Shown: positions 29,601-56,056 of the stretch, piece after piece
Layout: the number at the start of each line of letters is the position of its first letter
Numbering within the stretch: position 1 is the first letter of the stretch
NCBI RefSeq assembly: GCF_026151205.1
Contig: NC_087081.1
Location: 6,321,246-6,381,245 of the forward strand
Origin: Bolinopsis microptera
Lineage: Eukaryota > Ctenophora > Tentaculata > Lobata > Bolinopsidae
DNA length: 60,000 nt
Direction: 5' to 3'
Program-made: the position numbers and the translations under genes
Notes under the pieces: generated by a model
What the model was told of the DNA's origin: nothing
What the model saw: only the letters and a program-made list of their open reading frames with translations
The model's database searches: none

Positions 29601-32600
29601 TGTCAAATGCTTTGGCATAATCCAAGTATATGCAGTCGGTGTCATAATTCCATCAAGGAAGTTTTCCAGGATGTCGTCAAAGTTGTGGAGGAGCTGTGTT
29701 ACACAACTATGACCTGACCTAAATCCGTGATGCTGGCTACACAGTAGGTTGTTGGACTCAAGATGATGGACGAGTCGTTTCCTAATGAGGCGCTCAAATA
29801 TCTTAATGATATGGGAGGTCAAGGACACAGGGCGATAATTTGACGCAGTTGCATGGCTCCCTTTCTTGTACAATGGGCAGATAAGGGATTTTTTAGAATG
29901 CCGGGACAGCACCTGAGTCAAACGATTTGGACCAGAGGAGGTGTATTGGTCGTGCCAATGCATACTTGCAAGATTTGAAAAGTGTTGTAAGGATACCGTC
30001 AGGGCCAGGTGCGGCATTTGCTTTTAATTCATCAATGGCGGACACCACATCGCCCTTTGAGAATGACAAGTCGGCATCTTAAAATCTGCTTGCAATGGTT
30101 GGGGATGCAAAATCAGCAGCAGTCATGTCAACAGCATCTGGGTTACTGAAGACAGATTTGAACTGGTTTTGCAGGATGTTTGCAATAGCTGCTGAGGATC
30201 AGTACAGGTATTGTTCCTTTCATCGAAGAGCATGTTGATTGACTGTTTTTGCTTAGAAAATCTCTTAGCGTAGCTATAGAAATACTTTGGGTTGGACTTA
30301 ACGTTCCCTACTGCACGCTCTTCTCTGAAGTGTCTCTCGCTGACAATGGTATCTCTAATTTCATAGTGAATTAAAGCAACACGGTTCTCGAGGACAGCAA
30401 TGGATTACTTGGAAGACGTGAAGTCAGCATTAGCTCTATCCAGATGTTTTTGCAATCTCCGTTTCTTTCGTGAGAGAGTGCACATCTTGCAAGACATTTG
30501 TCCATTTGGCGGTAGTTTTTGCGGACAATTGTCTTGGCATATGCTTAGTAGGGTAGTCTTAAAGAGCTCATGAAATCTCTCTACCCCATTGGTGTCCAGA
30601 ATGTTGTCCCAGTCGAAAGACTTGATTATGTCGCTGATGCTAGTGAAATCAGCTTGGTTGAAGTCCAGCCTTCGAAAGGATGCAGCTTCAAACAGAGGAG
30701 GGAGGTTGATGTTTGGCTGACAGGGGTTGTGAGACAAAAATATCTCCACCAGGTCGTGATCAGACATCCTTGTGGGTTTGACGTCCACGTGGGTAACAAG
30801 GGAGGCTGAATTTGTCATGAATAGATCCAGAATATTTTTCTGCCTTGTTGGTTGAAGGATGTACTGACTATACATGTGGTTATTCATGAAATTCTCCATG
30901 AGTTCTGTAGATGGGCCGGGAGTGGTAACCATTGGATGATCCCATGAAATGCTAGGGAAACTGAAATCCCCTAGAAAGCATGTGTGGAAATCCTCTTTGC
31001 CGTTAGTTTACAGCATCGAGGCCAGCTTTGAAATCAGTAATGGTGCTGAAGGCGGTCTGTAAAGCACACAGATAATTATCTTAGCTGGTTCCGAAGTGCA
31101 CATGAGAAGCTGACAGGAGTCTTTGTCAAGCGACTCAGTGTTTGTGATGTGCAGGTCACGGTGGGTGTAAAGGAGTACCCCACCCCCAACCCTGGTACTA
31201 CGGTCACATCAGTGGGTATGATAGTCTTTAATGCCGGTTTGGTCATCGTACACATAAGATTTCAACCACGTTTCCGTTAGAGCTATGAATGGTAAACAGT
31301 TGGAGCTTGACTTCTGTCCGACAATGTCTTCAAGATAAGGGATTTCCCAACTGCAGACACTCCTAGCACTAGGGTTGACTGACTGTACATTTAACAGCAG
31401 GCAGGATTAATAGGAGTCATATTCGGCGGGTAGAACATCTGTTGACTCTGAACTGGATCCGAATATTTCTCCATCCTCTGTTGGTACAGTTGATGACTCA
31501 GACCTAATTCTTCAAAACATTATCATGACTCGTGAATCTAAAACTTGTGAGGAATGGTCATGTGACATGAATGTAGAATGAGTTTTAGGAGTAAGCAGAC
31601 TAATGGTGACAACCTCTTTCAACAAGGTGAACTAAAGCGGAAGATTATATGGGATGGTGTGTCACGTGATAAATGAAATAGGCCTAATAGGATGGCTAAT
31701 TAATTGAGTGTAGCTTATTGTTTTAAGTGAAATGCGTCTACAGAACTTAATGACAGGTATGAAACTATTTGCTGGGAAATGAAAACTTACATGATTTGAA
31801 GTGCTGAAACTGTGGAAAAAACGGTTCAATTTGAGGTGAAGGTGACTCATGATAATTTACAACAAACAAAATATAAAATATATAAATACTACTGAGCAAT
31901 TACTTCATTAGGATTAGAACGTGATAATCCTGGACCAGGCAAAAGTCCTGCTCACATTGGGACACTGGCTAAGTTTCTCGATGTAATTCGACTTATATGA
32001 CCCTAAATAACATAATTGACTCGGGTACACTTTTTCACCAGTGGGGCATTTCTCGGAATCACGCCCTTTTTGACCACACCCATATCGCGACCCCAACTAT
32101 AAATTATCTCGTCTTCTGATTGAGATACAGACCTCAGCTATGAACCAAAACGTGCCTAAGATGCATGTTTATATTAGTGCTATGAAGATACTTAAGGCCT
32201 AAGAGACTTAGTTTTTGAGAAATCGCCAAAAATCCGATTTTACTATATTAGCAGTTGAGTTATTAGGTCAAATCCCATTTTTACGCTTTCGCGAGTAGCG
32301 ATTGATGCACTTATTTCAAGATATCTCAGCTTCTGATTGGAGTTCAACGCTCATCTTGGGCATTGAAATGGTCAGAATCATCATATTAAGTGGGGTAGAG
32401 CATGGTTTTAAAGTCTTCAGACTTCAGGTTGTTGAGTTATTAGTTCAGATCCCATTTTTATGCTCTCGCGAGTAGCGATTGATGCACTTATTTCAAGATA
32501 TCTCAGCTTCTGATTGGAGTTCAACGCTCATCTTGGGCATTGAAATGGTCAGAATCATCATATTAAGTGGGGTAGAGCATGGTTTTAAAGTCTTCAGACT

Positions 32601-35600
32601 TCAGGTTGTTGAGTTATTAGGTCAGATCCCATTTTTTCGCTCTCGCGAATAGCGATTGATGCACTTATTTCAAGATATCTCAACTTCTGATTGGAGCTGT
32701 GGAGATAAGCGTTTATCATGGGCATAAAATAGTAAAAGTTATCAAATTAAGTAGCATCGAGCATAGTTTTAAAGTCTTTAGACTTCAGGTTATCAAATTA
32801 TTAGGTTAAACCCTATTTTTATGCTCTTGCAAGAATGGTCACTGCAATGGTGGAAATATTTATTAAATGAACTGTAATTAATCGCCAGGAAAAAGTCGTT
32901 TGCCAAGAAATATCAGTAAAATGTCACTAAAACCTCTAACACTGGGAAATGCTTTACCCCACTTAATATGATCATACTGACCATTTCAATGCCCATGATA
33001 AGCACTTAGCTTCAATCAGATGCTGCGATATCTTGTAATAAGTGTGTCAATCGCTACTCGCAAGAGTGTAAAAATATGTTATAACCTAATAATTCAACAA
33101 CCTGAAGTCTGAAGACTTTGAAACTATGCTCTACCCCACTCAATGTGATGATTCTGACCATTTCAATGCCCAAGATGAACGCTTAGCTCCAATCAGAAGC
33201 TGATATATCTTGAAATAAGTGCATCAATCGCTACTCGCGAGAGCGTAAAAATGGGATTTGACCTAATAACTCAACAACCTGAAGTCTGAAGACTTTAAAA
33301 CCATACTCTACCCCACTTAATATGATGATTCTGACCATTTCAATGCCCAAGATGAGCGTTAACTCCAATCAGAAGCTGAGATATCTTGAAATAAGTGCAT
33401 CAATCACTTCTCGCGAGAGCATGAAAATGGGATTTGACCTAATAACTCAACAACCTGAAGTCTGAAGACTTTAAAACCATGCTCTACCCCACTTAATCTG
33501 ATGATTCTGACCATTTCAATGCCCAAGATGAGCGTTAAACTCCAATCAGAAGCTGAGATATCTTGAAATAAGTGCATCAATCGCTACTCGCGAGAGCATA
33601 AAAATGGGATCTGACTAATAACTCAACAACCTGAAGTCTGAAGACTTTAAAACCATGCTCTACCCCACTTAATATGATGATTCTGACCATTTCAATGCCC
33701 AAGATGAGCGTTGAACTCCAATCAGAAGCTGAGATATCTTGAAATAAGTGCATCAATCGCTACTCGCGAGAGCGTAAAAATGGGATTTGACCTAATAACT
33801 CAACAACCTGAAGTCTGAAGACTTTGAAACCATGCTCTACCCCACTCAATATGATGATTCTGACCATTTTAATGCCCAAGATGAGCGCTTAGCTCCAATC
33901 AGAAGCTGAGATATCTTGAAATAAGTGTGATAATTGTTACTCTAGAGACTGCTAGTATAGTAAAATCGGATTTTTGGCGATTTCTCAAAAACTAAGTCTC
34001 TTAGGCCTTAAGTATCTTTATAGCACTAATATAAACATGCATCTTAGGCACATTTTGGTTCATAGCTGAGGTCTGTATCTCAATCAGAAGCCGAGATAAT
34101 TTATAGTTGGGGTCGCGATATGGGTGCGGTCAAAAAGGGCGTGATTCCGAGAAATGCCCCACTGGTGAAAAAGTGTACCCGAGTCAATTATGTTATTTAG
34201 GGTCATACAAGTCGAATTACATCGAGAAACTTAGCCAGTGTCCCAATGTGAGCAGGACTTTTGCCTGGTCCAGGATTATGATTACATAAATAATATTAAA
34301 GTTATTCTAAATTTCAATATAATCCAATTCTTGAATAATAATATGTCCCTAAACTAAACTAGTGTGGTGTAGTGGTAACACGATTCCCTCCCAAGCCGAA
34401 GACCCGGGTTCAAATCCGGTCGGATGCAAGTCGGCCAGTTACAAAGCTGTGATTTGGTACAGCTTCGGCTGGTGATACACACTCGGTAGCTCGTAGGACT
34501 AACCCCCCAGCCCCCCTTCAGCTAGTATAGTGCCTCGGCACAGAGTGGCTTAGGGTTACTGAAAAGGAGATAAGCACCTCTGGCCATCCCAACGTTCGGG
34601 AGAGACCTGCCCTTGTATCTTGTGTCATGTAAACTAAAATTTTAGGTAATAGGTTCCAAATACCGAAAGGTAAACTGTTCTCCGAAAAATCTTGTTTTAA
34701 AATGTAATGTAACTGTAAGCGCTGCTTTTAGTTTTAGTTTTAGCAAAAACTGACTCATAATAATGACTATCTATAAATATCACGAACTACTCAGAAGTCT
34801 ATAAATAAAAACTACTCAGAAGTCTATGGAAAAAACTACTCAGAAGTCTATAAATAAAAACTACTCAGAAGTCTATGGAAAAAACTACTCAGAAGTCTAT
34901 AAATAAAAACTACTCAGAAGTCTATAAATAAAAACTACTCAGAAGTCTATAAATAAAAACTACTCAGAAGTCTATAAACAAAAAACTACTAGAAGTCTAT
35001 AAATAAAAACTACTTCGAAGTCTATAAACAAAAACTACTCAGAAGTCTATAAATAAAATCTATTCAGAAATCTATAAAAACTGCTCAGAAGTCTATTAAT
35101 ATCAACTACTCAAAAGTCATTAGTGTGTTAATACCAATTACTTTCACCATGAGTGGTCGAATGTCACGCAGGATATGTAGTGCTTTGCATTTAAATCGGC
35201 TGTATCTTCGGTTCAGATGGATATATATTTTGATGCCTTAAAAACTTACTACCACTGAATATTATTACTTTCTTCCCTGTGACCACGGGCTTTCTATTAT
35301 TCTATAAACATCAACTACTCCCCCCCCCCCCCCCCCCCCCCCCCAGTTGAGAGTGCTGACTGCAGATCTATCTTGATACATTTTAATTTGCACTATTCCT
35401 ATCATACCGACTGATAGGGGTGTTGACCAAAATAGAAGCCCTCATAGTTCACAAAAGTATATTATTTTGTAATTATTCTACATCATCCAATAATCAATAA
35501 TAATTAACTACTCTCCAGAGTGTGAACAAGGAAAGTCGCCGTGCTCGAACGGTTGGCAATGTGTCCGAGATGCCTATGTATGTGATGAAGAAGACGATTG

Positions 35601-45845: not shown

Positions 45846-48379
45846 TAATCCTGGACCAGGCAAAAGTCCTGCTCACATTGGGACACTGGCTAAGTTTCTC
45901 GATGTAATTCGACTTATATGACCCTAAATAACATAATTGACTCGGGTACACTTTTTCACCAGTGGGGCATTTCTCGGAATCACGCCCTTTTTGACCGCAC
46001 CCATATCGCGACCCCAACTATAAATTATCTCGTCTTCTGATTGAGATACAGACCTCAGCTATGAACCAAAACGTGCCTAAGATGCATGTTTATATTAGTG
46101 CTATGAAGATACTTAAGGCCTAAGAGACTTAGTTTTTGAGAAATCGCCAAAAATCCGATTTTACTATATTAGCAGTTGAGTTATTAGGTCAAATCCCATT
46201 TTTACGCTTTCGCGAGTAGCGATTGATGCACTTATTTCAAGATATCTCAGCTTCTGATTGGAGTTCAACGCTCATCTTGGGCATTGAAATGGTCAGAATC
46301 ATCATATTAAGTGGGGTAGAGCATGGTTTTAAAGTCTTCAGACTTCAGGTTGTTGAGTTATTAGTTCAGATCCCATTTTTATGCTCTCGCGAGTAGCGAT
46401 TGATGCACTTATTTCAAGATATCTCAGCTTCTGATTGGAGTTCAACGCTCATCTTGGGCATTGAAATGGTCAGAATCATCATATTAAGTGGGGTAGAGCA
46501 TGGTTTTAAAGTCTTCAGACTTCAGGTTGTTGAGTTATTAGGTCAGATCCCATTTTTTCGCTCTCGCGAATAGCGATTGATGCACTTATTTCAAGATATC
46601 TCAACTTCTGATTGGAGCTGTGGAGATAAGCGTTTATCATGGGCATAAAAATAGTAAAAGTTATCAAATTAAGTAGCATCGAGCATAGTTTTAAAGTCTT
46701 TAGACTTCAGGTTATCAAATTATTAGGTTAAACCCTATTATTATGCTCTTGCAAGAATGGTCACTGCAATGGTGGAAATATTTATTAAATGAACTGTAAT
46801 TAATCGCCAGGAAAAAGTCGTTTGCCAAGAAATATCAGTAAAATGTCACTAAAACCTCTAACACTGGGAAATGCTTTACCCCACTTAATATGATCATACT
46901 GACCATTTCAATGCCCATGATAAGCACTTAGCTTCAATCAGATGCTGCGATATCTTGTAATAAGTGTGTCAATCGCTACTCGCAAGAGTGTAAAAATATG
47001 TTATAACCTAATAATTCAACAACCTGAAGTCTGAAGACTTTGAAACTATGCTCTACCCCACTCAATGTGATGATTCTGACCATTTCAATGCCCAAGATGA
47101 ACGCTTAGCTCCAATCAGAAGCTGATATATCTTGAAATAAGTGCATCAATCGCTACTCGCGAGAGCGTAAAAATGGGATTTGACCTAATAACTCAACAAC
47201 CTGAAGTCTGAAGACTTTAAAACCATACTCTACCCCACTTAATATGATGATTTTGACCATTTCAATGCCCAAGATGAGCGTTGAACTCCAATCAGAAGCT
47301 GAGATATCTTGAAATAAGTGCATCAATCGCTACTCGCGAGAGCGTAAAAATGGGATTTGACCTAATAACTCAACAACCTGAAGTCTGAAGACTTTGAAAC
47401 CATGCTCTACCCCACTTAATCTGATGATTCTGACCATTTCAATGCCCAAGATGAGGGTTAAACTCCAATCAGAAGCTGAGATATCTTGAAATAAGTGCAT
47501 CAATCGCTAGTCGCGAGAGCATAAAAATGGGATCTGGACTAATAACTCAACAACCTGAAGTCTGAAGACTTTAAAACCATGCTCTACCCCACTTAATATG
47601 ATGATTTTGACCATTTCAATGCCCAAGATGAGCGTTGAACTCCAATCAGAAGCTGAGATATCTTGAAATAAGTGCATCAATCGCTACTCGCGAGAGCGTA
47701 AAAATGGGATTTGACCTAATAACTCAACAACCTGAAGTCTGAAGACTTTGAAACCATGCTCTACCCCACTTAATCTGATGATTCTGACCATTTCAATACC
47801 CAAGATGAGGGTTAAACTCCAATCAGAAGCTGAGATATCTTGAAATAAGTGCATCAATCGCTAGTCGCGAGAGCATAAAAATGGGATCTGGACTAATAAC
47901 TCAACAACCTGAAGTCTGAAGACTTTAAAACCATGCTCTACCCCACTTAATATGATGATTCTGACCATTTTAATGCCCAAGATGAGCGCTTAGCTCCAAT
48001 CAGAAGCGGAGATATCTTGAAATAAGTGTGATAATTGTTACTCTAGACACTGCTAATATAGTAAAATCTGATTTTTGGCGATTTCTCAAAAACTAAGTCT
48101 CTTAGGCCTTAAGCATCTTCATAGCACTAATATAAACGTGCATCTTAGGCACGTTTTGGTTCATAGCTGAGGTCTGTATCTCAATCAGAAGCCGAGATAA
48201 TTTATAGTTGGGGTCGCGATATGGGTGCGGTCAAAAAGGGCGTGATTCCGAGAAATGCCCCACTGGTGAAAAAGTGTACCCGAGTCAATTATGTTATTTA
48301 GGGTCATATAAGTCGAATTATATTGAGAAACTTAGCCAGTGTCCCAATGTGAGCAGGACTTTTGCCTGGTCCAGGATTA
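45846..48379. mobile_element. 2,534-bp foldback element with 3-bp TSD (TAA), copy 2
   Basis: Same family as 31925-34278 and nearly identical to it, with the same TAATCCTGGACC ends. TAA flanks it at 45843-45845 and 48380-48382. It is 180 bp longer, matching one extra ~177-bp unit in the right arm. It ends only 270 bp before the start codon of the pentraxin gene, so it could affect that gene's promoter. Confidence 0.9.
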
Positions 48380-48649: not shown

Positions 48650-49045
48650 ATGAGACAGGTTATCCTTGGAATGCTCGCCCTTATACTCCTGCAACATGGC
48701 ACTAGTGCAGATTCTTTTACCGACCAGCGCCGCTATAATGCCCTGAAGTTCGGGCAAAGTTCAACTGACTAGGTGCATGACAAACCAGACATGCAACCCT
48801 TTGAGACCTCATTTACCGTGTGTGCTTGGATAAGGAAGTTGTATAGCACAGGAGATCCAACCTGGTTCTTTTACTCAACTAGTACTACAGGATACGAAAT
48901 AGAATTGGGTGATGATGGTTCTGAAACAAGAATATTTGGCGACGAAGCTGATTTACGCAGCCTCTACACGGTGTCCCTAGGCACGTGGTACCACAACTGC
49001 CTAAGTTGGGACTCAGCAACCCAAGCGAGAAGCGTATACATAAAC

Positions 49046-49153
49046 GGTGTACTAGTTAACAGTGCGGCAACAACAGAGGGAAGAACACTGGAACTAGACG
49101 GTGTACTAGTTAACAGTACGGCAACAACAGAGGGAAGAACACTGGAACTAGAC
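49046..49153 (+). repeat. 54-bp in-frame tandem duplication inside the pentraxin domain
   Basis: GVLVNSAATTEGRTLELD is repeated once as GVLVNSTATTEGRTLELD; the two copies differ by one base. It would insert an 18-residue loop between two beta strands. Confidence 0.95.
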
Positions 49154-50160
49154 GGGTATCTCGTACTGGGTAACGAACAGAATAGTCCGAATAGCGGAAT
49201 GGATAGTGGCAATATTTTTGGCGGAGAAATGTTCAAGCTCATTGTGTTTAGCAAGAAGTTAAACCAAAGTGAGGTTCAGGAGATGGCAAAACAAATGTGC
49301 TCTGAAGTAGAGGAGACGTACGGAGATGTGCGATCCATAAAGTGGGAGGATATTCTGCTGCAAACTAAGAACGGAGACGTTACTGAGTTGAATACGGGAT
49401 GTCAAGTTGTCATCGACATCATAAAACAGTTCCGAGCCACAATTCTGCAGACAAAGGAAATGCTAAATGGCACGCTCGAAGAGCTGGAGCGGATCAAGCA
49501 GGAAAAAGAAACCTACAGTGACAACTTGAAGAGTAAAGCAGATCAACTCAACACAACTGAGGCACAGCAACGCTCAACAGTAAAAGAATTGGACAAGACA
49601 ACGAAGGAACTGAACATCACCGCTATATACGGCTCTTAATCAGGCCCAAAGCGAGCTTGAAAATGCAAAAGATTTATTGGAAAAGGCCGTTAATGCTACT
49701 TTGGACTGTCCTCTCAACTCGACCGTAACAAGTCGGTGGGATTTACTGTATTCCGAAGAGTTCCTCGGTGAGATTATAACCGCAAAGAAACTTGAAGTCC
49801 TTCGCAAGAGTGTAAAAAAGCTAGGTAATTACTTTGCATGTTTTGATGTTTCCATAACCTATAAATTGATCTACGTTTATTTCAGGATTGAACTCTTGTT
49901 AATACTTATGCTAAACATTTTGAAATGTGCCGGGGAGTGGCGACCCCAAGCTTAGTGCTCACAAAAACAATGAAGATATAGTGAGATAGTGGAATGGCAG
50001 GCTGAGCGCCGACTAGTAACTTAAAATGTGCTCTACTACTTATATATATCCATATGCTTAAAACTTAAAAGATATGAATTTTGTGGAAAGCCATACAATT
50101 GTGTGTTTCGGATTTGCTAACTACGGTAGTTTGTTATCGTAAATTAACTCACAATTTCAG

Positions 50161-52431: not shown

Positions 52432-55400
52432 GTAAGTGGACTCATGATGATCTAATTTAACAAAATGCATTTTTAAATTATTATGTTCATGTATTTGTAT
52501 TAACTCAAATTTAAATGTGCACTTTTAGATGTATGATGAAAACCAAGTGAAATCTTGTCGAGCCATTATCATATTTCAGGGGTGTTAAGAAGACGTATAT
52601 CCGGTGAGATAACCCCAGTTTTAGCAGAACAGTCCAGCCCCACGTACCAAGATAACGAGGATGAGTATGGTGCTAAGAATGCTATAGATCTGAAGTTTAC
52701 GACCACAGCAAAAATGGCGCCTTCTAACAACGCGTTATGGATAAAGTTCACCCTTCAGCAGGTTCACTGTCTGAGTCAGCTAGTGTGGTATAAGCAAGAT
52801 GGGCGCATTCATCGTAGCTGGATTTGCTCTCCGACAGAGTGTCACTGTCAGCATGAATCGTGTTCTCAGGGCTTTGCTACGACACTGACTGTCAGTACGG
52901 AGGGTACAGCTCATGATGATCTCCCTCAAGTCCCCGACTGCAGGTACGGGGACACAGTGAGCTTTCAAATAGGAGGCGATAGCTGGTCGGGTCGGGTAGC
53001 AGAGGTAGCCATTATTATCAACCCAGGTTTGTTTATAATTATAAAGCATTCTATCGACCTTATAGTTATAAGGACGATATTATAGTTCTTCGCCATCCAC
53101 TTCTTTTACTATTGCTAAAGATACGAAAACAATTCTATGGTTTCATAGACGATCTGCAATTGTAATTGCATTCATATCTGTCACGAAAAAATGAATGCGT
53201 ATATTTCAGATCTGCGGCATCCTTCTGGCACGGACCTCAAATGGGATGGAGTCTGGGGAACATGGGCGACGCATTACTCGACTTGTCCACACGGAGGGTT
53301 TGCCACCATGTTCGAACAGAAAATGCAGAAGTCTTTAGGTGATGAAGGTGATGACACTTCACTAAACGGAATTTGCCTCATTTGCAATACTGGTGATAAA
53401 GTTTGCAGTAACTCTGGGGAGTGGGGTGAATGGCAACCACACAGCAGGATTTGTTCTTCTGGATTCAATGCTGCAGATTTCAAGTTTGAAGCTTACTTGG
53501 GATCTGGTGACGATTCAGCTGGTAACGCTTTGAGGTTGTTCTGCAGTAGATGTGATACTGATTCTTATGACGCGAGTGGTGGGGAATCGGGTGACTATCA
53601 GGGCAAACTCTCTTGTCCAGCAGATCAAGTCATTTGTGGGATTAAAACTAGGATCGAGGGAAATCAAAATGGTGGGGATGATAACACGGCACTCAATGGT
53701 GTTTCGCTTCAGTGTTGTGAAAAACTAGCCTGGACAAATGATGTTTTAGGTACGATAATTATAAGATTCATATTTCTTCGGTCGGTACTCGGTAGTTTGG
53801 AGCATGCACTTTCTATTCTCAGAAGGTTCAACTTCAAACCCAGGCTTCTTTTCAGCTTAATTACTGGTTTTGAAATGTAAATGAAAATCTTTGTTAAACA
53901 TGAAGACAATAATGTATATTATGTTCATTGTTCATTGATAATGTGCATTATTATCGAACATAATAATGTAAAATGTCCTTCAGGTCCGTGTGAATGTGGA
54001 CAACGTTTTGATGAGAACAACGGTTGTGTGGAGTGCCCGGAGAACCAGTGGAGCTCGGATGGAAATACCGCTGAAACTTGCCTAGCATGTCCTTCAGGGA
54101 AAGGGGTGGCAGCTGGAGAAGGAAAAAAAGAAAGTGATTGTGCGTGGGGTAAGTTAAGCCTTTCTGTTGTCTGTTGTAGTCGCAACTCATTTTAATCAAT
54201 TCTCGACTGGATTTTCAGACTCATTTCATTCTATTTTTTTTCTTTCGTTTCAGATTAGATAACCGAGGTATTGAATTTCATTTGATCGATTTTAAGCAAT
54301 TTATATTAAGCTAACGTTTAATATACCTAAACAATATACCTTTACTGTTTAGCTACAATAGCCAACTAATATTCAAAATGATCATCTTGTTTTGCAGTAA
54401 TGCGTGGTTAACTGTTTAGCTACAACAGCCAACTAATACTCAAAATGATCATCTTGTTTTGCAGTAATGCGTGGTTAACTGTTTAGCTACAACAGCCAAC
54501 TAATATTCAAAATGATCATCTTGTTTTGCAGTAATGCGTGGTTAACTGTTTAGCTACAACAGCCAACTAATATTCAAAATGATCATCTTGTTTTGCAGTA
54601 ATGCGTGGTTAACTGTTTAGCTACAACAGCCAACTAATATTCAAAATGATCATCTTGTTTTGCAGTAATGCGTGGTTAACTGTTTAGCTACAACAGCCAA
54701 CTAATATTCAAAATGATCATCTTGTTTTGCAGTAATGCGTGGTTAACTGTTTAGCTACAACAGCCAACTAATACTCAAAATGATCATCTTGTTTTGCAGA
54801 GCCGTGTGTTGCGTGGTTAACTGTTTAGCTACAACAGCCAACTAATATTCAAAATGATCATCTTGTTTTGCAGTAATGCGTGGTTAACTGTTTAGCTACA
54901 ATAGCCAACTAATACTCAAAATGATCATCTTGTTTTGCAGAGCCGTGTGTTGCGTGGTTAACTGTTTAGCTACAACAGCCAACTAATATTCAAAATGATC
55001 ATCTTGTTTTGCAGTAATGCGTGGTTAACTGTTTAGCTACAACAGCCAACTAATACTCAAAATGATCATCTTGTTTTGCAGAGCCGTGTGTTGCGTGGTT
55101 AACTGTTTAGCTACAACAGCCAACTAATATTCAAAATGATCATCTTGTTTTGCAGAGCCGTGTGTTGGTGGACAATTCCTTCATGAGATGAATGGCTGTC
55201 AGGACTGTCCTGAAGATCAGTGGAGTGCTGCTGGTACAGCTGCTTTTTGTACAGCCTGTCCAGAAGGTAAAGTGGTAGCAGCGGGACAGGGACACCAAGA
55301 AAATGACTGCATATGGAGTAAGTTGGATTATTTTTAAATGCTACATAATTCATCGAGTGTGCTTTAGATTCGTAGAAGCAGCAGAATTTGATTATCAGAA

Positions 55401-56056
55401 GTTCTTCTAGGATCGAATTTTTAATAAATACGTAGTAGCGGTGAGTAGCATGGGGTATAAGCTGTTGAAATCCACTAATTTAAAGTATAGCGAGTAAGTA
55501 TCTTTAAGTTGAACGTTACAACTAAACCAGAACTAACAACAATCTCCACAGAGCCCTGCAATGCTGGACAGTACCTTGATGAAGCATCAGGTTGTACAGA
55601 CTGTCAAGATAACGAGTGGAGTTTGGGAGGTGACAGATGTACGCCATGTCCTGAGAACACGGGAGTGGTGACAGGACAAGGAACTAAAGAAGAGGACTGC
55701 AAATGTAAATATCGTCTTTCTTTCAAGGTTAAAAGTTGATAAATCATATCATAGAGGTTGTGAAAAGCAATGATTTATTGAATATATCACCTCTATAATT
55801 TATTATTTCAGCACTCTGTGAAAATTACGATGAAACACTGTCCATATCCACACCGGAACCACCGTTCCCATTGTTCGAAGGATCACTCGTCACCTTCAAA
55901 TGTCTGAGAAAACACTTCCAAATTGGTGGAAACCTTATTGGGACTTGCCAAGAAAATCACATTGTTTTCCTAAATGGGAACCCAGTCTGCTCTAAGATCA
56001 GTAAGTTGTTTTGTGATTATAATGAGAACGTAGCAATAATGGCTGATCTTTTTTAA
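52380..56056 (+). CDS. Secreted mosaic protein: discoidin-like, VMO-I, three ephrin-receptor-like modules, CCP
   Basis: Exons: 52380-52431 signal peptide; 52580-53026 discoidin-like; 53210-53749 VMO-I; 53984-54148, 55156-55317 and 55552-55704 ephrin-receptor-like; 55812-56000 CCP/Sushi. Every internal exon is phase 1-1 with consensus splice sites and no stops, so one reading frame of ~560 codons is intact. An in-frame acceptor just before the ATG (AATTTCAG|GAAATG) implies an upstream 5' untranslated exon. The 3' end is uncertain: reading past the CCP donor gives a stop at 56056, or splicing may continue to an unseen exon. Such carbohydrate-binding plus cysteine-rich mosaics are extracellular, and lectin or complement-like roles are plausible but inferred. 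I recognise no named orthologue. Confidence 0.8.
52580..53026 (+). CDS. Mosaic gene exon 2: F5/8-type C (discoidin)-like domain
   Basis: 149 codons. The opening AEQSSPTYQDNEDEYGAKNA is followed by IDLKFTTTAKMAPSNNALWI, matching the A.qSS.y....A.nAiDg.....W. pattern of galactose-binding discoidin and fucolectin folds, followed by KFTLQQVHCLSQLVWY. Six further cysteines in the second half suggest extra disulphides. Domain assignment is by pattern and moderately sure. Confidence 0.6.
53210..53749 (+). CDS. Mosaic gene exon 3: VMO-I (vitelline membrane outer layer 1) domain
   Basis: 180 codons in one exon. Three internal repeats end in an acidic turn: LGDEGDDTSLNG, LGSGDDSAGNAL and GGDDNTALNG, each preceded by a G.W (WGTW, WGEW, SGDYQ) strand and CP/CS cysteines. 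This three-fold pattern with FATMF and VICGIKTRIE is characteristic of the VMO-I beta-prism fold, known from egg vitelline membranes and common in invertebrate secreted proteins. Confidence 0.85.
53984..54148 (+). CDS. Mosaic gene exon 4: ephrin-receptor-like Cys-rich module 1
   Basis: 55 codons: PCECGQRFDENNGCVECPE, then NQWSSDG, CLACPSGKG and a closing ESDCAW. It has the spacing of the GCC2/GCC3 or ephrin-receptor-like repeat (CxxCPxGxxS...C..CP.G). Confidence 0.8.
54348..55155 (+). repeat. 67/74-bp minisatellite carrying a repeated 3' splice site
   Basis: Twelve tandem units each end with CATCTTGTTTTGCAG, a full pyrimidine tract and AG. Eight units continue TAATGCGTGG. Three continue AGCCGTGTGTTGCG, copying the first 12 bases of the real exon, and the twelfth leads into the true exon at 55156. 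The intron is thereby ~1.0 kb against 150-240 bases for the neighbouring introns of this gene. Confidence 0.95.
55156..55317 (+). CDS. Mosaic gene exon 5: ephrin-receptor-like module 2
   Basis: 54 codons: PCVGGQFLHEMNGCQDCPED, then QWSAAGT, CTACPEGKV and NDCIW. Parallel to exon 4 in cysteine spacing. Its acceptor is the last of 12 near-identical candidates. Confidence 0.8.
55552..55704 (+). CDS. Mosaic gene exon 6: ephrin-receptor-like module 3
   Basis: 51 codons: PCNAGQYLDEASGCTDCQDN, then EWSLGGD, CTPCPENTG and EEDCK. Slightly shorter in the middle loop than modules 1 and 2. Confidence 0.8.
55812..56000 (+). CDS. Mosaic gene exon 7: CCP/Sushi module
   Basis: 63 codons with four cysteines in CCP order (LCENYD, VTFKCLRK, IGTCQEN, PVCSK) and the LFEGSLVTFKC strand. 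The normal Trp before the last cysteine is replaced by Phe (IVFLNGNPVC). Donor A|GTAAGT, phase 1. Confidence 0.75.

What the first reader, a model, noticed from the sequence alone, without database searches (positions are those of the whole stretch)
54348..55155. Minisatellite that multiplies a 3' splice site: 11 decoy acceptors before the real one
Each 67- or 74-bp unit contains a polypyrimidine tract plus CAG identical to the true acceptor at 55155. Three decoys are also followed by the first 12 bases of the real exon, so the array grew by copying the intron-exon junction. Decoy use would add intron sequence and early stops, so the gene must choose the last of 12 near-identical sites or tolerate mis-splicing. 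This could tune expression or make allele-dependent isoforms.
Basis: seen in the sequence. Interest (0 to 1): 0.75.

Follow-up and report, generated by a model that had tools for sequence, protein, structure and literature searches.

The report
Minisatellite copying a splice acceptor twelvefold
In what is probably a comb jelly gene, the stretch that marks where an intron ends has been copied into a row of twelve nearly identical sites with only the last one in the right place, a larger case of a repeat type already described in lancelets, and how the cell finds the right site has not been tested here.

Summary
An array at 54344-55155 carries 12 copies of a branch point-like motif, pyrimidine tract and CAG. 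The first 11 are decoys; the last is the acceptor of a phase-1 exon at 55156-55317. Eight decoys are followed by TAATGCG, three by the first 12 bases of the real exon. All 11 decoys put a stop codon after 4 or 9 residues, 207-906 nt before the next exon junction. By the search used, the unit occurs nowhere else in the genome. Of 27 unique acceptors collected from this exon family (10 clearly different), only this one has copies 74-758 nt upstream, inside its own intron. Paralogous introns that I read on C2, C7 and C10 have one acceptor before the same exon start. Assembly statistics match the ctenophore Bolinopsis microptera. The structure is a 'mirage', the name given in lancelets to minisatellites duplicating an intron-exon boundary; reports there say normal splicing is kept. 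Most likely it is a young, tolerated minisatellite with the last site used for productive mRNA and any decoy splicing lost to decay. A copy-number-dependent expression dial is possible but has no direct evidence. No RNA, raw reads or second haplotype were available.

The parts
53984..54148 (+). Upstream exon, cysteine-rich ephrin-receptor-like module (165 nt, phase 1-1), donor GTAAGT at 54149
   Evidence: Reading frame and length; homologous exons and donors in paralogues
54149..55155 (+). Intron holding the array (1007 nt; 195 nt of it lie before the array)
   Evidence: Frame across the junction gives DCAW-E-PCVGG; length
54199..54253 (+). Two acceptor-like AGs outside the array (54218 and 54253)
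   Evidence: Scores; stops after 14 and 1 residues
54344..55155 (+). Minisatellite: 12 acceptor-bearing copies of a 54-base core with 67- or 74-bp spacing
54344..54397 (+). First decoy (followed by TAATGCG)
54733..54811 (+). Unit with decoy at 54799, followed by the first 12 exon bases
54874..54952 (+). Unit with decoy at 54940, followed by the first 12 exon bases
55015..55093 (+). Unit with decoy at 55081, followed by the first 12 exon bases
55102..55155 (+). Last copy, inferred true acceptor (AG at 55154-55155)
55156..55317 (+). Exon after the array, second module (162 nt, phase 1-1), donor at 55318
   Evidence: Pfam on the joined translation
55552..55704 (+). Next exon, third module; in frame both after the 55156 exon and after the 53984 exon

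Best explanation
A mirage-type minisatellite. The 3' end of one intron (branch point-like motif, pyrimidine tract, AG) with at least the first 12 bases of the next exon was duplicated in tandem and then expanded, part of it apparently as a 141-bp dimer, to 12 copies. Eight of the 11 inner copies carry a version in which the exon start is replaced by TAA. Only the copy touching the exon gives an open frame. I infer that productive mRNA uses the last copy, that splicing to other copies happens to some degree but makes transcripts with stops after 4 or 9 residues that nonsense-mediated decay would remove, and that the array is tolerated and not selected for. A further inference is that growth may protect itself: the array lengthens the intron from about 195 nt to 1007 nt while the next intron stays 234 nt, the class in which human alternative splicing data favour the acceptor nearest the exon's own donor, here the last copy. 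Shown: the array, its uniqueness by the search used, single acceptors in the paralogous introns read, frames and stops. Inferred: which acceptor is used, decay, tolerance, self-protection.
For: Array structure; unit found only here (12 of 12 matches in the array). Of 27 unique family acceptors, 10 of them clearly different from each other, only this one has copies 74-758 nt upstream; 12 others have 1-3 near copies at 528-1383 nt, spacings that fit tandem exon-plus-intron copies, and 14 have none; the upstream stretch searched was 115-1500 nt. Paralogous introns on C2, C7 and C10 read by eye have one acceptor. Both flanking exons look constrained: dN 0.14-0.22 against dS 0.34-0.52 in 6 of 6 comparisons, not independent of each other. 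Copies differ by 1.5% on average, so the expansion is recent or homogenised. Lancelet precedent with normal mRNA (passages). Long upstream with short downstream intron (class LS) is said to behave like exon definition for 3' sites, with the border near 250 nt (PMC9225289, passages).
Against: The same paper says that acceptors at least 20 nt apart show an overall preference for the upstream site, strong when both flanking introns are short. Joining to the first decoy would make a 249-nt intron, so the class is not fixed beforehand. Three decoys score exactly as the real site and an AG at 54253 nearly so. The real site is not outstanding: seven of 11 training acceptors score higher. So use of the last site is not self-evident. 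The globin report rests on RT-PCR as I read the passage, which could miss decayed products. Whether ctenophores obey the 250-nt border or use decay in this way was not tested.
Confidence: 0.7

Rival explanations
1. Expression dial: the decoys compete with the true acceptor, each added copy sends more transcripts to decay, and array length sets output per allele or per cell.
For: 11 of 11 decoys give stops 207-906 nt upstream of the next junction; three decoys equal the real site in score; overall upstream preference among competing acceptors in human data; lancelet BflGb6 has 6 and 3 units in two haplotypes.
Against: No RNA, no alleles; lancelet cases are reported as not disturbing splicing; no sign that the array is conserved (no intron-internal copies at other family acceptors; orthologues in other species not available).
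Confidence: 0.17
2. Module-skipping switch: competition weakens recognition of the 55156 exon, which is skipped; the exon is symmetric, so the protein loses one module and stays in frame.
For: Exon is 162 nt, phase 1-1; joining 54148 to 55552 keeps the frame.
Against: The exons collected from this family were required by my pattern to have this symmetric form, and 9 of the 10 clearly different ones listed there are 165 nt, so symmetry is no special feature here; no RNA.
Confidence: 0.06
3. Assembly artefact or wrong copy number.
For: No reads were available; tandem arrays are error-prone; the lancelet paper reports one mirage that was misassembled in the draft genome.
Against: 812 bp is well below usual long-read lengths (recalled); two C/T variants and three longer units in a regular alternation are not what a simple duplication error gives.
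Confidence: 0.05
4. RNA folding of the array hides the decoys and presents the last site.
For: The array folds better than 20 of 20 dinucleotide shuffles, z -3.39. In the whole intron the branch point stretch of the last copy is the most open of the 12 (0.72 unpaired against 0.35-0.61).
Against: With a fairer control, the unit itself shuffled and repeated 12 times, 12 of 60 fold at least as well (z -0.77); the tract and AG of the last copy are not more open than those of decoys (0.24 against 0.18-0.36).
Confidence: 0.02

Closest known systems
Lancelet 'mirages' at intron-exon boundaries (globins BflGb6 and BflGb9, Adh3, troponin C; similar imperfect repeats in PGBD5); PMC3087553 and PMC3902484, passages read
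   Same: Tandem minisatellite-like duplication of an intron-exon boundary; many but not all units keep the splice signal; BflGb6 likewise duplicates the 3' intron end and the 5' part of the exon
   Different: Here probably a ctenophore; 12 acceptors in 67/74-bp units (BflGb6 has 6 or 3 units of 150-160 bp, 81-100% identical); copies nearly identical; only 3 of 11 decoys keep exon bases
Reed and Maniatis splice-site competition (1986; seen only as described in PMC9225289, passages)
   Same: Competing 3' splice sites for one 5' splice site
   Different: Natural, 12 sites, each with its own branch point-like motif and pyrimidine tract
Internal tandem repeats that alter gene structure of human segmental-duplication paralogues (PMC2812944, passages read)
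   Same: Recent tandem repeats changing exon-intron structure
   Different: There repeats activate cryptic splice sites and form novel introns; here an existing acceptor is multiplied

Membership tests
Mirage (minisatellite duplication of an intron-exon boundary) | Tandem repeat unit spans an intron-exon boundary | tested here: met
   3 of 11 decoys carry the 12-base exon start; in the other 8 it is replaced by TAA
Mirage (minisatellite duplication of an intron-exon boundary) | The authentic boundary is part of the array | tested here: met
   The last copy ends at 55155 against the open exon
Mirage (minisatellite duplication of an intron-exon boundary) | Many units keep splice signals | tested here: met
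   12 of 12 copies keep CTAAT, tract and CAG with no other AG between
Mirage (minisatellite duplication of an intron-exon boundary) | Regular mRNA is still made (reported, not strictly defining) | not testable with these tools
   No RNA data
Mirage (minisatellite duplication of an intron-exon boundary) | Length instability between haplotypes or cells (reported, not strictly defining) | not testable with these tools
   One assembly; only one copy of the locus found
Mirage (minisatellite duplication of an intron-exon boundary) | Host is a lancelet (all cases that I found; not part of the structural definition) | tested here: not met
   264.65 Mb, 13 contigs of 15-26 Mb, largest 26.2 Mb, N50 20.8 Mb match Bolinopsis microptera: 265 Mb, 13 chromosomes, largest 26.2 Mb, N50 20.8 Mb, GC 38.5% (PMC11797021 Table 1).

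The most novel reading that the evidence does not exclude
A naturally variable splicing dial: array length at one acceptor sets, allele by allele or cell by cell, the fraction of transcripts sent to decay for a multi-domain gene in a ctenophore, with longer arrays pushing the intron from intron definition into exon definition; and mirages are a general animal phenomenon and not a lancelet oddity.
Probability: 0.15. Interest if true: 0.78.

Novelty: new member of a known kind. Interest (0 to 1): 0.45.

Why it matters
It is a natural version of the classic duplicated-acceptor experiment with 12 sites instead of two, in a lineage far from lancelets. The short-intron proximity rule points to the upstream sites; the reading frame, and the rule for a long upstream and short downstream intron, point to the last. 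Measuring nascent and mature RNA at this locus would test how exon and intron definition are balanced in a ctenophore, and whether reports of harmless mirages in lancelets reflect accurate splicing or efficient decay of wrong products. It also suggests that boundary minisatellites, proposed as a source of new introns, are not confined to lancelets.

Tried and rejected
RNA structure as the chooser: significant against 20 plain shuffles, not against 60 shuffled-unit arrays. One result leans the other way: the branch point stretch of the last copy is the most open of the 12. I rate it low, not excluded.

Identification by microRNA: Rfam let-7 and mir-10 searches rang in none of the control genomes, and exact 22- and 20-base patterns found 0 matches; uninformative by themselves. 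Assembly statistics gave the answer.

Other boundary arrays in this genome: in 28 kinase loci (105,411 bases) TRF printed 13 rows of period 20 or more. I looked at one of the 13 (L073). In 36 family loci (120,933 bases, overlapping loci counted more than once) TRF rows of period 20 or more and 75% match or more are listed; apart from the focal array (seen in L003 and L078) and the exon-plus-intron repeat (L008, L030), I did not hold the other rows against gene models, so I cannot say that none of them touches an exon edge. This is no genome-wide rate.

Fault notes: one search translated in the wrong frame, and searches used 55319 as the exon end; the right end is 55317 and one search replaces them (the stop positions agree; the exon lengths and the 'normal' translation are superseded). 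Searches ended with script errors after printing the rows that I cite. The TRF listing was cut short; one search repeats it. The first Pfam query has one extra letter at an exon joint near its end, and the fourth a wrong first letter. The weight matrix has only 11 training sites (9 family sites after leaving out the focal one, 2 further introns of the window gene), which score 3.8 to 19.0 against themselves; the gap between TAA decoys and the real site comes from the +1 base alone and is partly a small-sample effect.

By titles and abstract openings listed I saw no boundary minisatellite outside lancelets that multiplies an acceptor; several lists were capped (20 of 305; 10 of 69; 12 of 14), one search found no paper, most subscription papers are not held, and the original Adh paper is not held.

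Full report
What is there. The window is G000:C10:6321246-6381245 of a 264.65-Mb assembly. At 54344-55155 lies a tandem array with TRF periods 67 and 141. TTTTGCAG ends at 12 positions from 54397 to 55155, 67 (8 of 11) or 74 (3 of 11) bases apart. The 54-base core before each AG is the same in all copies but for two C/T positions; mean pairwise difference is 1.5% over 66 pairs. In 12 of 12 cores CTAAT has its second A 28 nt from the last base of the AG with no other AG between. Eight of 11 decoys are followed by TAATGCG, three (54799, 54940, 55081) by the first 12 bases of the real exon. In the right half, exon-bearing and TAA units alternate, which fits expansion as a dimer (my reading).

Gene. 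Window translations joined across exons match Pfam VOMI (E 4.4e-30), an ELAPOR1-like TNF-receptor-like model exactly at its cut-off (33.2 bits) and, just under its cut-off, Ephrin_rec_like (22.8 against 23.1 bits); 'ephrin-receptor-like module' is therefore a working name. Exons 53984-54148 (165 nt), 55156-55317 (162 nt) and 55552-55704 join in frame as DCAW-E-PCVGG and DCIW-K-PCNAG. Nei-Gojobori counts against paralogous exons give dN 0.14-0.22 and dS 0.34-0.52 in 6 of 6 comparisons, so both exons look under constraint.

Decoys. Joining the donor at 54148 to each of 11 decoys gives a stop after 4 residues (8 of 11) or 9 residues (3 of 11), 207 to 906 nt before the next junction. Two AGs upstream of the array, 54218 and 54253, give stops after 14 and 1 residues. 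A small weight matrix from 11 acceptors scores the real site and three decoys 13.69, 54253 13.29, 54218 11.28 and the other eight decoys 9.73; a fraction 0.00069 of 7219 AGs on both strands of the window (5) reaches 13.69, the four array sites among them; seven of the 11 training sites score higher than the real site. Skipping the exon keeps the frame.

Where it came from. The unit matches only this array in the genome. A query of 54140-54420 matched only this locus at E up to 1; but in a longer query that includes the exon, alignments to C2 and C10 paralogues run up to about 55 bases into the intron (to 54203), so the start of the intron is shared and the rest is not recognisably so. Paralogous genes with the same exon pair exist on C10 about 5.4 Mb away, which also has VOMI, and on C2, C6 and C7. 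The introns read by eye on C2, C7 and C10 end in one acceptor of the type CCATCCTTCTTTTCAG before AGCCGTG. A pattern found 110 family exons, 27 unique acceptor contexts, 10 clearly different. Only the focal one has copies at 74-758 nt (11 of them); 12 others have 1-3 near copies at 528-1383 nt, in keeping with tandem exon-plus-intron copies (steps), and 14 have none within the 115-1500 nt available. So the array most likely arose in this gene by copying the boundary. A weak hint: the units read GTTGC where paralogues also have C and the present exon has G, as if copies kept an older exon base (one base only).

Organism. Thirteen contigs are 15 to 26 Mb; the five others that I looked at are 0.08 to 0.2 Mb. 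Total, largest contig (26.2 Mb) and N50 (20.8 Mb, computed) equal those tabulated for Bolinopsis microptera in PMC11797021 (passages read); window GC is 38.6% against 38.5%. PMC10232365 describes 13 chromosome-scale scaffolds holding 97.23% of bases (passages read); here 258.07 of 264.65 Mb. The contig count differs (232 here, 346 there). The name is an inference from these numbers.

How it works. Which site is used cannot be seen from DNA. PMC9225289 (abstract and passages; mammalian data) says that competing acceptors at least 20 nt apart show an overall preference for the upstream site, strong when both flanking introns are shorter than 250 nt, much reduced when both are long, and that a long upstream with a short downstream intron behaves like exon definition. 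Without the array this intron would be about 195 nt; with it, 1007 nt, and the next is 234 nt. The locus as it stands falls in the class that favours the last site, while joining to the first decoy would make a 249-nt intron. My inference is that array growth itself may have moved the intron into the class where the last copy wins. Lancelet mirages are reported to keep normal mRNA (PMC3087553 section 16 and PMC3902484 section 17, passages), the other ground for my best explanation; decay of wrong products could hide decoy use in such data. RNA folding is a weak candidate. The lack of decoy-killing mutations is not informative because the copies hardly differ at all.

Comparison and verdict. 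It meets the structural features of a mirage that I could test; normal splicing and instability could not be tested. Host and number of copies are new as far as my seven searches on the subject go. Checking the calls added the intron-class argument in favour of the last site and the open branch point stretch in favour of folding; neither moved the odds that I gave. I score it as a new member of a known kind, interest 0.45.

Noticed in passing
G000 C10:14540450-14564351, C3:7372674-7389625, C4:3311971-3315369, C13:11766124-11771188, C2:22077167-22079493: The same cysteine-rich module lies in long tandem rows, mostly at steps of about 529 to 552 bp, as if exon plus intron were copied as one unit; copy number may vary (one search scored 150 of 613 candidates).
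   Followed up: partly
L028:1771-1869: The paralogous intron on C2 holds a perfect 50-bp tandem duplication inside the intron, not at the boundary.
   Followed up: no
L073:2827-3178: A frame from 2827 reads 32 residues to a stop in what may be the last exon of a gene near a kinase exon; after it, part of that exon recurs, and TGTAG, 18-19 bases and GT (GTAAG twice, GTGAC once) recur three times.
   Followed up: partly
49044-49155: A 54-bp (18-residue) near-perfect tandem duplication inside an open frame that matches pentraxin and laminin-G models, upstream in the window.
   Followed up: no
32254-33927 and 46175-48028: A 177-bp satellite appears in two places, each time as two blocks whose consensus units look like reverse complements of each other (by eye).
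   Followed up: no
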